From the NCBI GenBank assembly GCA_017305715.1, contig JAFKKG010000016.1, positions 62,001-126,000 of the forward strand: a stretch of DNA of 64,000 nucleotides, read 5' to 3'. The DNA comes from Hyphomicrobiales bacterium (GTDB lineage Bacteria; Pseudomonadota; Alphaproteobacteria; Rhizobiales; Xanthobacteraceae). The notes under the pieces were generated by a model that had not been told where the DNA came from, did no database searches, and worked only from the letters and a program-made list of their open reading frames with translations. The stretch's first letter is position 1, and every line of letters starts with the position of its first letter. A program made the translations under genes and the position numbers. This document shows, piece after piece, positions 37,960 through 40,450 of this stretch.

Positions 37960-38059
37960 CCGCGTTAAGGCATCGTTGACAGCTTTTTTCAACCCTCCGT
38001 TCACCAAGTCTCAACTCCCTCGCGGCTAGATTCCGCCCGCTGTCTTGGGGGATGGGGTT

Positions 38060-38467
38060 TTGATCGTTTCGACCGCTGCCGCGCAACGCCGCGCGCTGTT
38101 CATTCTTGCGTTCACTTTGGCGATCGGCGCGTCGCGCTTCGTGACCGAGAGTTTTGTGACCAAGACCTGGGCGGCCGGCGCGCTCGCGGTCGGCAAATGC
38201 GGCGCCTATGGCCAGGCCTATGACTATCCCGCCGAAGCCTCCGCGCGTGCGGCTGCGCTCAAGCAATGCAAGGGCGACTGCACCACGGTCACCATGAAAC
38301 GCGCCTGCGCCGCGTTCGCGGTCGACATGGCAAAACCCTGCGGCGCGCACGGCTACGCCGTCAAGCCGAAGATTTCGAGCTCGCTCAATGCCGCGACGAA
38401 AAAATGCTACGAATTCGGCGGCAAGGAATGCGTGATCCGCGCCTGGGCCTGCGATGCCAAGGGGTGA
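38060..38467 (+). CDS. Secreted DUF4189-like Cys-rich protein
   Basis: 135 residues if started at the TTG at 38060; a TTG at 38045 is an alternative, and no ATG is in frame near the N-terminus. A hydrophobic N-terminal segment (RRALFILAFTLAIGAS) suggests a signal peptide or anchor. The rest has regularly spaced cysteines (KCGAYG, LKQCKGDC, KRACAAFA, KKCYEFGGKEC, RAWACD) with the CGAYG...YP.EASARAAALK..C pattern of DUF4189. Likely periplasmic with disulfides; function unknown. Confidence 0.65.
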   Translation: MIVSTAAAQRRALFILAFTLAIGASRFVTESFVTKTWAAGALAVGKCGAYGQAYDYPAEASARAAALKQCKGDCTTVTMKRACAAFAVDMAKPCGAHGYAVKPKISSSLNAATKKCYEFGGKECVIRAWACDAKG

Positions 38468-38498
38468 TGCGCCGAACCCGATCCTGATACACTGACGC

Positions 38499-38590
38499 CA
38501 TCCTGAGGAGCGCGCCGTTGCGCGCGTCTCGAAGGATGGACGCGGGCTCCCATGGTTCGAGACGGCGCTACGCGCCTCCTCACCATGAGG
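38499..38590. repeat. Intergenic palindromic repeat, family C
   Basis: Contains CATCCTGAGGAGCGCGCC, GCGTCTCGAAGGATGG and CATGGTTCGAGACGGCGC, ending CGCCTCCTCACCATGAGG. These are nested inverted repeats of a well-known Rhizobiales intergenic type, between the DUF4189 and DUF2000 genes. Confidence 0.8.
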
Positions 38591-38627
38591 GATTGAGTTC
38601 TCGGGAATTCCTGGAGTGAAGTTTTCA

Positions 38628-39038
38628 ATGCAATTCGACACCAAAATCGCGGTCGTGATCCGGACCGATCTCGAACCGTGGCAGAAGCTCAATGTGGCGT
38701 CGTTTCTGGCCGGCGGCATTGCCGCTTCGTTTCCCGAATGTATCGGGGAGCCCTATGGCGACGGCTCCGGTACCACATATCTGGCGCTGATCGGCCAGCC
38801 GATCCTGATCTACGGCGCCGATCGCGCCGCCCTGTCGCGCGCGCTCGAACGCGCGCTGGCGCGCAGCGTGACGCCGGCGGTCTATACCGAAGACATGTTC
38901 AAGACCACGCATGACGCCGCCAACCGCGAGGTGGTGAAAGCGGTGATCCGCGCCGAACTCAATCTGGTGGGAATTGCCGTGCGCGCCGAGCGCAAGGTGA
39001 TCGACAAGATCGTCGACGGGCTGAAGTTTCACAGTTGA
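38628..39038 (+). CDS. DUF2000 family protein
   Basis: 136 residues from the ATG at 38628 (GGAG about 11 bp upstream); a GTG at 38616 would add four residues. The pattern FDTKIAVVIRTDLEPWQKLN, FLAGGIAASFPE and PILIYGADRAAL matches DUF2000, a small alpha/beta fold related to peptidyl-tRNA hydrolase 2. It is cytosolic and uncharacterised. Convergent with the leader-peptide gene. Confidence 0.75.
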   Translation: MQFDTKIAVVIRTDLEPWQKLNVASFLAGGIAASFPECIGEPYGDGSGTTYLALIGQPILIYGADRAALSRALERALARSVTPAVYTEDMFKTTHDAANREVVKAVIRAELNLVGIAVRAERKVIDKIVDGLKFHS

Positions 39039-39122: not shown

Positions 39123-39329
39123 TTAGCTGCAATATGCCCGGCCGATCGCCGTGCCGATCGCGCCGAGAACACCACCGATGAAGGGAATGCTGTTCAGGGA
39201 ATCCACGATTCCGCCGATCCGGTTGTGCTGATTCACCGAACAGTTCATGCCGAAGAAGGGCATGCCGCCCGACACGGTGTCCAGATCCTCGATGTGCAGT
39301 TCGCTGGCACCATTGTTCAATTTGGTCAT
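39123..39329 (-). CDS. Double-glycine leader peptide, bacteriocin-like precursor
   Basis: 68 residues from the ATG at 39329 (AGG about 9 bp upstream); an ATG two codons earlier (39335) is possible. The first 22 residues form a classic double-glycine leader: ELHIEDLDTVSGG, with conserved Glu, Leu/Ile and Leu before the Gly-Gly cleavage site. The predicted 46-residue core begins MPFFGMNC and ends AYCS, holding two Cys (predicted core positions 8 and 45) and a Gly-rich hydrophobic segment with GxxxG spacing (IGGVLGAIGTAIG). This is the design of class II bacteriocins and microcins exported by C39-peptidase ABC transporters. No such transporter or immunity gene is seen nearby. A dioxygenase gene lies 167 bp upstream on the same strand. 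Confidence 0.7.
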   Translation of the reverse strand: MTKLNNGASELHIEDLDTVSGGMPFFGMNCSVNQHNRIGGIVDSLNSIPFIGGVLGAIGTAIGRAYCS

Positions 39330-39496
39330 CTTCATTCGCCTATTTGGTTTTCGGTGAGGACAATCCCTCAACTCGCGCGGTGAGGAATAGGTCAATCCGA
39401 ACAAGCCGACTGTGGTCGATGTCACGTCATTGCGGACAAGCGTAACGTGATCATCAATCACATACGACCAAGTGCCGGCGTTGCGCCTGGACCTGC

Positions 39497-40450
39497 TCAG
39501 GTCGTTGTGCCGGCATAGGTTGGCTCGAGCCGCGAGCGAAGGAATTCGGCGCCGGTGATCGGCGCATATTTGGCCGGGCGATCTCGGTTGATGCAGGTCG
39601 GCAGGCACGCGACCATCGCGTCCGGATTGGGGTCAAGAAAGAACGCGACCGAATAGCGATCTGCGCCCAATGGATTGACCACTTTGTGCGGCGTCGAGAC
39701 ATACACGTCGTTCGACCATCGCATCAGGCAATCGCCGATATTGCAGACAAACGCGCCGGGGATGACCGGCGCATCGAGCCAGCGGCCGGACCGATCCTTC
39801 ACCATCAGGCCGCCGACCGCGTCCGTCGCGAGCAACGTGACATTGCCGTAATCGGTATGGACGCCCGCACCAAGCTGTCCGTCGGGAGGAGGGCTCGTGA
39901 CCGGCGGATAGTGGAGCAGGCGGAGTGTGGCAATCGGCTTGTCGAGTTTGCTCTCGAAGAATTCCGGCTCGAGTCCAAGGTCGAGCGCGAAGCCGCGATG
40001 CAGATCGCGCCCCAGCCGCCAGACACGATCGAAATAGTCGAGCATGGTGTCGCGAAACCCCGGCATGTCCGGCCATAGATTGGGGGCTCGAAACGGCGCG
40101 CGTGCGAGCAGTTGGGGATCGTCAGGCGCAAGCTCGAGGCCGATGTTGAAGGCTTCCTTGAAGTCGGCGGGCTTGCCCGGATCGAGCGTCTCGCCACCGA
40201 GCCTGATGTAGCCGCGATTATCGCCGGGACCGCTGAACGACGTCGCCTCGCGAAGTGAGGCCGGGCCGGCAAAGAAGGCCGCCGACATTTCGAACACCCG
40301 CGCGACCAGGGCCGGCGGGATCATGTGGCCCGTCACATAGAAGAAACCGACATCGCGGCAGGCACTCCCCAAGGCATCAGCCACCGCGCGGGTTTGCTCA
40401 GGCGAGCCGTTCACGAGCGGAGCAATATCGATGATGGGAATGGCGGTCAT
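39497..40450 (-). CDS. Isopenicillin-N-synthase-like Fe(II)/2-oxoglutarate dioxygenase
   Basis: 317 residues from the ATG at 40450. The N-terminus IPIIDIAPLVNG and GFFYVTGHMIP are the DIOX_N pattern. The catalytic domain carries the iron triad HTDYG ... STPHKVV and the co-substrate Arg in RYSVAFF. Cytosolic. Relatives include plant-type oxidases, 2OG-dependent hydroxylases and ethylene-forming enzymes; the substrate is unknown. It is the only biosynthetic-type enzyme near the leader-peptide gene. Confidence 0.88.
   Translation of the reverse strand: MTAIPIIDIAPLVNGSPEQTRAVADALGSACRDVGFFYVTGHMIPPALVARVFEMSAAFFAGPASLREATSFSGPGDNRGYIRLGGETLDPGKPADFKEAFNIGLELAPDDPQLLARAPFRAPNLWPDMPGFRDTMLDYFDRVWRLGRDLHRGFALDLGLEPEFFESKLDKPIATLRLLHYPPVTSPPPDGQLGAGVHTDYGNVTLLATDAVGGLMVKDRSGRWLDAPVIPGAFVCNIGDCLMRWSNDVYVSTPHKVVNPLGADRYSVAFFLDPNPDAMVACLPTCINRDRPAKYAPITGAEFLRSRLEPTYAGTTT

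What the first reader, a model, noticed from the sequence alone, without database searches (positions are those of the whole stretch)
39123..40450. Double-glycine leader peptide next to a 2OG-type dioxygenase: possible unrecognised peptide natural product
The 68-residue precursor has a textbook GG leader (ELHIEDLDTVSGG) and a hydrophobic, GxxxG-containing core with two widely spaced cysteines. No C39-peptidase transporter or immunity gene lies in the window, so export must be in trans or the peptide has another fate. A dioxygenase on the same strand 167 bp upstream is the only enzyme nearby that could tailor it. The pairing is inference.
Basis: partly seen in the sequence, partly recalled or inferred. 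Interest (0 to 1): 0.75.

Follow-up and report, generated by a model that had tools for sequence, protein, structure and literature searches.

The report
Scattered secreted peptides sharing one exporter
A soil bacterium carries a small export-tagged peptide gene that looks like one of a large set of scattered, fast-varying peptide genes with a common type of promoter and, in this genus, probably one export machine; the enzyme gene beside it is most likely a bystander.

Summary
In detail: a 68-aa ORF (window 39123-39329, minus strand) has a GG leader and a 46-aa core with two cysteines. The dioxygenase pairing is not supported: a related genome has the same neighbourhood with the dioxygenase but no peptide, and the peptide's one close relative (50% identity) has no dioxygenase near. 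Export in trans is supported: the one C39 peptidase found in the genome belongs to a complete NHLM-type exporter on another contig. A leader profile gives 8 matches in this genome and up to 26 in relatives. In 142 genomes of the genus, 30 of 36 leader genomes have that exporter against 11 of 106 others; 27 of 125 leader places lie within 10 kb of it, 0.37 expected. I catalogued 117 distinct precursors in 57 core groups. Their upstream regions share a CRP-like box (55 of 71; 3-6% in controls), a -10 at class II spacing and often a 5'-UTR hairpin; the window peptide has all three. Outside the genus the exporter link is weak. Best reading: one member of a dispersed, co-regulated, hypervariable family of secreted, class-II-bacteriocin-like peptides. 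Activity is untested.

The parts
39123..39329 (-). GG-leader precursor gene, 68 aa (alternative start at 39335 gives 70 aa)
   Evidence: the G012 relative starts at the corresponding M-T
39264..39329 (-). double-glycine leader, 22 aa (MTKLNNGASELHIEDLDTVSGG)
   Evidence: profile A2 match E 6.4e-12 in own genome (this leader is one of the nine rows of A2)
39126..39263 (-). core peptide, 46 aa, Cys 8 and Cys 45
   Evidence: direct reading; both Cys and 23 of 46 core residues kept in the G012 relative
39355..39370 (-). predicted 5'-UTR hairpin TGAGGG(ATTG)TCCTCA (one G-U pair)
   Evidence: hairpins with stem of 5 or more and loop AT[GCT][GA] in 24 of 71 upstreams against 4 and 4 of 71 in two control zones
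39384..39389 (-). -10-like element TATTCC, 37 nt from the start of the box
   Evidence: T 0.56, A 0.85 and T 0.54 at offsets 37, 38 and 42 over 52 upstreams (the window's has C at offset 42)
39411..39426 (-). CRP-like box CGTGACATCGACCACA (2 mismatches to TGTGAN6TCACA)
   Evidence: such a box (at most 2 mismatches) in 55 of 71 non-redundant upstreams, 3-6% in three controls

Best explanation
The peptide is one of about eight dispersed precursors found by profile in this Bradyrhizobium genome that share a short GG leader (consensus MTxLNxExRELxIEELDxVSGG) but carry different cores. It is its own transcription unit with a class-II-type promoter for a CRP-family regulator (box centred at -41.5), followed by a 5'-UTR hairpin. 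The leader takes the precursor to the genome's NHLM-type exporter (C39 peptidase/ABC, HlyD adaptor, second ABC), encoded on another contig, which cuts after GG and exports the core. The mature 46-mer probably carries one disulfide between its ends and no enzymatic tailoring. It most likely acts outside the cell as a class-II-bacteriocin-like competition peptide, with the repertoire differing from strain to strain. Shown by computation: the leader family, its co-occurrence and linkage with the exporter within the genus, the shared promoter elements and hairpin, the lack of dioxygenase linkage. Inferred: cleavage and export in trans, the regulator, the disulfide, the activity. The confidence is for the family, export and regulon part; for the bacteriocin-like role alone it is about 0.45.
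For: One C39 domain found in the genome, in an NHLM exporter with three subunits over the curated cut-offs (ABC1 1060 against 853, HlyD 293 against 156, ABC2 861 against 709 bits). Leader profile: 36 of 142 genomes of the genus, 8 places in own genome. NHLM_ABC1 over cut-off in 41 of 142; both 30, leader only 6, exporter only 11, neither 95, Fisher p 6e-16, and 2e-14 without the three genomes of the set that supplied leaders to the profile. Of 141 leader places, 125 are in exporter genomes and 27 of these lie within 10 kb of ABC1, 0.37 expected, in 17 genomes. Three GG peptides around the exporter in G054, one in the own cluster. CRP-like box in 55 of 71, -10 at the spacing that puts the box at -41.5, hairpin with variable stems; the window peptide has all three. 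LanC-like proteins not found in own, G012, G085, G004; G085, with 22 leader places, also shows no YcaO.
Against: Outside the genus the exporter link is weak: of 6 other-genus genomes with leader matches at E<=0.01 only 1 has NHLM_ABC1 over cut-off; four of the other five have another C39 domain, one shows none. 11 exporter genomes show no leader match. C39 domains as such are common: 18 of 20 genus members without leader and NHLM match have one, 5 of them at E<1e-30. Four of the eight own-genome leader matches are weak (E 0.018-0.075), though each has a box with 1-2 mismatches. Three exporter operons examined have no such box. The window box has 2 mismatches. No neighbouring frame is shared with the relative, so no immunity gene is seen. 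The own genome has one YcaO on another contig. Co-occurrence may partly reflect ancestry. No structure model was obtained (job unfinished).
Confidence: 0.72

Rival explanations
1. Same export route, but the peptides are signals or plant/host-facing effectors rather than bacteriocins.
For: No frame next to the peptide is shared with its relative, so no immunity gene is seen; 82 of 117 cores have no cysteine; regulon-like promoters.
Against: Several core groups are hydrophobic and glycine-rich as in class II bacteriocins, and 7 of 17 members scanned match PF10439 at E<=0.1 (best 3.6e-6). No link to symbiosis genes was looked for.
Confidence: 0.3
2. One reading: the 2OG dioxygenase hydroxylates or otherwise tailors this peptide.
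For: Same strand, 167 nt apart.
Against: Dioxygenase kept without the peptide in G032 (same neighbourhood) and G048; the G012 relative has no dioxygenase near; promoter-like elements in the gap.
Confidence: 0.04
3. The peptide leaves by another route or is not exported; the leader class is not tied to the NHLM exporter.
For: Genomes with leader matches but without the NHLM exporter exist, above all in other genera.
Against: One C39 domain found in this genome; strong co-occurrence and physical linkage within the genus.
Confidence: 0.12
4. The cores are modified by an unlinked enzyme such as the YcaO on contig C35.
For: One YcaO each in own genome, G012 and G054.
Against: G085 (22 leader places) and G004 show neither YcaO nor LanC. 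The four genes of the own exporter cluster that were scanned include no modification enzyme; its flanks were not scanned.
Confidence: 0.08
5. Chance ORF with a GG-like stretch.
For: Only one close relative among 145 other genomes.
Against: Synonymous changes under conserved residues, conserved cysteines, family leader, box and hairpin.
Confidence: 0.01

Closest known systems
NHLP/N11P precursors with the NHLM three-gene exporter (Haft, Basu and Mitchell 2010, PMC2887384; passages seen, one of them from the abstract)
   Same: Same exporter families TIGR03794, TIGR03796 and TIGR03797; shared leader ending in GG, hypervariable core, several precursors per genome.
   Different: Here the leader is about 22 aa with no match to nitrile hydratase or Nif11 models; no modification enzyme among the four cluster genes scanned; most genes lie away from the exporter, with promoter-like elements of their own. 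A passage of that paper says the exporter occurs more widely than NHLP and may lead to further families.
Cyanobacterial double-glycine bacteriocin clusters (Wang, Fewer and Sivonen 2011, PMC3140520; passages seen)
   Same: Many diverse GG precursors with C39 exporters; some with the three-gene cassette.
   Different: That survey takes precursors from regions surrounding the transporter genes; here 98 of 125 leader places in exporter genomes are more than 10 kb from ABC1 or on another contig.
Class II GG-leader bacteriocins, Pfam PF10439
   Same: Leader type, size, hydrophobic core with GxxxG, C39 exporter in the genome.
   Different: Window peptide below the gathering score (13 against 27 bits); no immunity gene seen; exporter not in the same locus.
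Prochlorosins (listing and start of the abstract of PMC10783134 seen; rest recalled)
   Same: Many hypervariable precursors served by one central machinery.
   Different: Prochlorosins are Nif11-family lanthipeptides modified by a ProcM-type enzyme; no LanC-like protein was found in this genome.

Membership tests
Class II GG-leader bacteriocin | GG leader of about 15-30 aa matching the GG consensus | tested here: met
Class II GG-leader bacteriocin | C39-type exporter in the genome | tested here: met
   (in trans, another contig)
Class II GG-leader bacteriocin | Score over the curated family cut-off | tested here: not met
   window peptide: PF10439 13.1-13.6 bits against 27.1, no NCBIfam model over cut-off. 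Two further members scanned singly also fall short (20.2 and 15 bits); for the member with E 3.6e-6 no bits were shown.
Class II GG-leader bacteriocin | Immunity gene beside the precursor | tested here: inconclusive
   of 108 frames of 30 aa or more within 3 kb, those with a match in the relative's locus L004 overlap the peptide itself; an immunity gene could be unrecognisable or elsewhere
Class II GG-leader bacteriocin | Antibacterial activity | not testable with these tools
   none
NHLP/N11P precursor | Nitrile-hydratase-like or Nif11-like leader domain | tested here: not met
   no such match for the window peptide or the 17 members scanned
NHLP/N11P precursor | Genome has the NHLM three-gene exporter | tested here: met
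2OG-dioxygenase-tailored RiPP | Precursor and enzyme genes stay together across genomes | tested here: not met
CRP-dependent class II promoter (consensus and -41.5 geometry recalled) | TGTGAN6TCACA-like box with the -10 placed so that the box centre is at -41.5 | tested here: met
   family; window peptide: 2 mismatches, TATTCC at offset 37
CRP-dependent class II promoter (consensus and -41.5 geometry recalled) | A CRP-family regulator that binds it | not tested
   no regulator was sought

The most novel reading that the evidence does not exclude
Promoter box, 5'-UTR hairpin and leader form a module that is joined to ever different cores, so that a CRP-family regulator switches on a strain-specific set of scattered secreted peptides, all leaving through one NHLM exporter; fixed chromosomal slots, such as the one behind the DUF2000 gene, hold different cores in different strains. 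The hairpin with its recurring AUGR-type loop could be an RNA control element common to much of the set.
Probability: 0.35. Interest if true: 0.85.

Novelty: new variant of a known kind. Interest (0 to 1): 0.68.

Why it matters
Bradyrhizobium is a common soil and root-nodule genus whose strain competition is an old practical problem (recalled). A large, apparently co-regulated set of secreted peptides, which curated models match weakly at best among the members scanned, would be a concrete candidate for how strains compete or signal. It also gives NHLM exporters without an NHLP precursor a likely substrate class, which the 2010 description of the exporter left open. Box, hairpin and leader together give a simple rule for finding more members, and one deletion (ABC1) should remove the whole set from the medium, so the idea is directly testable.

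Tried and rejected
Dioxygenase pairing: rejected by synteny. Phage, plasmid or viral relatives of this peptide: none convincing in phages or plasmids (best E 0.7), none in viral contigs. Both scans rest on short back-translated patterns and can miss relatives. With A1 in 296 family genomes only the window's own match was full-length; matches in 10 other genomes were partial, some real leaders, others in unrelated frames. Lanthipeptide or thiazole products: LanC-like found in 1 of 5 genomes looked at, YcaO in 3 of 5. The box in front of the exporter operon: not found in three operons (best 3-4 mismatches within 400 nt). A fixed 12-mer GGGAATGGTCCC as second element was too narrow: 17 of 71 with at most 2 mismatches (0-2% in controls); plain stems of 5 or more in that zone, any loop, are less telling, 26 of 71 against 14 of 71 in a far zone and 13% in shuffles; the loop-defined hairpin replaced both, and its loop class was chosen after looking at the sequences. 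Homology of the core with the peptide in the same slot of G012: none by BLASTP, although DNA scores of promoter, leader and core-plus-3' stretches exceed shuffles (z 4.7-7.6), so diverged orthology is not excluded. Three leader-only genomes (G023, G065, G116) rest on E 0.01-0.03 and may be chance: E-values are per genome, so over 142 genomes at E<=0.1 up to about 14 false matches are expected, at E<=0.01 about 1.4.

Full report
OBSERVATION. The ORF is real and as described. On the minus strand, 39329 down to 39123 encodes 68 aa: leader MTKLNNGASELHIEDLDTVSGG and a 46-aa core with cysteines at positions 8 and 45. An in-frame ATG two codons upstream (39335) would give 70 aa; the close relative begins at the corresponding M-T. 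The 2OG dioxygenase (39497-40450) ends 167 nt upstream. Curated families do not name the peptide: best Pfam match PF10439 at 13 bits against a cut-off of 27, no NCBIfam model over cut-off. The genus is taken to be Bradyrhizobium from the title of the record that corresponds to G012, a genome of the same genus as the window's.

THE DIOXYGENASE IS A BYSTANDER. A dioxygenase 84-85% identical occurs in 2 of 59 other genomes of the genus searched, G032 and G048; a more distant one (42%) in G037. In G032 it stands in the same neighbourhood (xdhC-type gene, molybdopterin gene, DUF4189, DUF2000), with a 446-aa gene and no peptide between DUF2000 and it; in G048 it stands elsewhere, again without the peptide (no leader-profile match at E<=1 in either stretch). 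Neither genome is among the 41 with the exporter or the 36 with leader matches. The only close relative of the peptide found (G012, 50% identity) lies where none of the other eight window proteins tested has a match within 16 kb. 34 of 68 aligned codons encode the same residue, 15 of them with different codons; both cysteines and the stretch CSVNQxNxIG are kept. Of 108 frames of 30 aa or more within 3 kb of the peptide, the ones with a match in the relative's locus overlap the peptide itself, so no immunity gene or other partner is shared.

THE EXPORTER. One C39 peptidase domain was found in the genome, on contig C40; the window is on C44. It belongs to an NHLM-type set: ABC1 with C39, HlyD adaptor and ABC2, each over its NCBIfam cut-off, followed by a gene with cNMP-binding and patatin-like similarity below cut-off. 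The C39 part reads EAVECGAAAL, HFVVLEG and INDPAVG, the places where catalytic Cys, His and Asp are expected (sequence; assignment recalled). A 54-aa GG peptide is encoded inside this cluster (L005:5516-5680), a similar one in G012, and three GG peptides stand around the exporter of G054.

THE FAMILY. Nine leaders (the window's, one from G012, and seven from the family-level search, read) gave a 22-column profile. In 142 genomes of the genus it matches 36 at E<=0.1: 26 places in G012, 22 in G085, 10 in G090, 8 in the own genome on 7 contigs. Four of the own eight are strong (E<=8e-4), four weak (0.018-0.075). Against NHLM_ABC1 over cut-off (41 of 142): both 30, leader only 6, exporter only 11, neither 95 (Fisher p 6e-16; 2e-14 without the three genomes of the set that supplied leaders). 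At E<=0.01 the leader-only genomes are three: two (G090, G101) have an incomplete ABC1 match near a contig end by the contig lengths, and the third (G009) another C39 domain about 2 kb from its leader gene. Related genomes are not independent, so I rely more on linkage: of 141 leader places 125 are in exporter genomes, and 27 of these lie within 10 kb of ABC1 against 0.37 expected, in 17 genomes. From 122 loci and the window I catalogued 117 distinct precursors at a permissive threshold (E<=0.5), some cut off or weak; their cores fall into 57 groups, 29 of them single; 82 cores have no cysteine, 22 one, 13 two. Of 17 members scanned, 8 match the NCBIfam CTB family (best 4e-4), 6 CCRG-2 (best 1e-3) and 7 PF10439 (best 3.6e-6) at E<=0.1.

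LIMITS OF THE EXPORTER LINK. In 296 genomes of the family, NHLM_ABC1 is over cut-off in 17 and the leader matches 10 at E<=0.01, both in 4, three of them in the window's genus. Of the five other-genus genomes with leader but without NHLM_ABC1 over cut-off, four have another C39 domain and one none found. So the leader class is probably served by other C39 exporters there. C39 domains alone are common: 18 of 20 genus members without leader and NHLM matches have one, 5 of them at E<1e-30.

A SHARED PROMOTER AND HAIRPIN. Loci were chosen by leader only, the promoter was found afterwards. Among 71 non-redundant upstream regions, 55 have TGTGAN6TCACA with at most 2 mismatches, against 5.9% in shuffles, 4.9% of 1420 random places in the same loci and 3.1% of 64 upstreams of other long ORFs. 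In 52 the box starts 70-105 nt before the start codon; aligned on the box, offsets 37-42 read TANNCT (T 0.56, A 0.85, C 0.52, T 0.54). This places the box centre at -41.5, the class II geometry of CRP (recalled). Between -62 and -15, hairpins with loop AT[GCT][GA] occur in 24 of 71 with stem of 5 or more, against 4 and 4 of 71 in two control zones (30 against 6 and 12 for stem of 4, 43 against 19 and 17 for stem of 3; G-U pairs allowed); the 43 have 27 distinct innermost stem ends of 3-4 nt, while loops recur. The loop class was chosen after looking, so this part is weaker than the box. Of the own genome's eight profile members, seven have a box with at most 2 mismatches, the eighth (L054) 3. 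The window peptide has box 39411-39426 (2 mismatches), TATTCC 39384-39389 and hairpin 39355-39370. Boxes with at most 2 mismatches occur 12 times in the 64-kb window, so one falling by chance in a given 35-nt zone has a probability of about 0.7%. Three exporter operons examined show no such box, nor does the dioxygenase upstream (4 mismatches).

SAME SLOT, DIFFERENT CORE. The peptide ends 84 nt from the convergent DUF2000 gene. DUF2000 is present in 89 of 98 genomes. Of 30 such loci scanned, two have a leader match there: the window's and G012, where the core is different; G357 has the G012-type peptide in the same place. DNA identity of the flank ends at the DUF2000 gene. In G012 the window-type core sits on another contig. 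Either cores diverge fast or they are exchanged; not resolved.

MODIFICATION. LanC-like proteins: none found in own, G012, G085, G004, one in G054. YcaO: one each in own, G012 and G054, none found in G085 and G004. With 22 leader places and neither family in G085, these enzymes are not generally needed. Other modification families were not searched for. A disulfide in the window peptide is inference.

NOVELTY. The exporter, GG leaders and hypervariable cores are known (PMC2887384 and PMC3140520, passages seen). I saw no report of this family in the listings of ten paper searches; these cover open papers only, listings were capped, and Dirix et al. 2004, a survey of GG peptides in Gram-negatives, was seen only as a citation. 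I call it a new variant of a known kind: short non-NHLP leader, scattered single genes, common CRP-like promoter and 5' hairpin, exporter in trans.

Noticed in passing
L005:5516-5680 (minus), own genome C40: 54-aa GG peptide with glycine-rich core inside the NHLM exporter cluster, similar in G012 (L022:15133-15309); its leader (DLLNDEQLSIVNGG) differs from the scattered class.
   Followed up: partly
L188, L193, L196, L197, L198 (and L192 by protein match), downstream of the DUF2000 gene: Stretches of the 3' end of the DUF2000 gene recur about 0.7-1.4 kb downstream in 6 of 30 loci (short in L197), as if DNA is inserted or exchanged at that gene end; the window peptide sits just behind this gene.
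   Followed up: partly
G009 (L120), G124 (L121): A GG peptide (leader ELADKELDAVCGG) lies about 2 kb from an ABC exporter that scores below the NHLM cut-off (C39 domain confirmed for G009 only): a possible separate peptide-exporter pair.
   Followed up: no
G000:C35:283890-284837: YcaO protein in the own genome, on the same contig as two of the scattered GG peptides but some 175 kb away.
   Followed up: no
window 38045-39038: DUF4189 and DUF2000 genes follow the molybdopterin/xanthine dehydrogenase accessory genes; DUF2000 matches in 89 of 98 genomes of the genus.
   Followed up: partly
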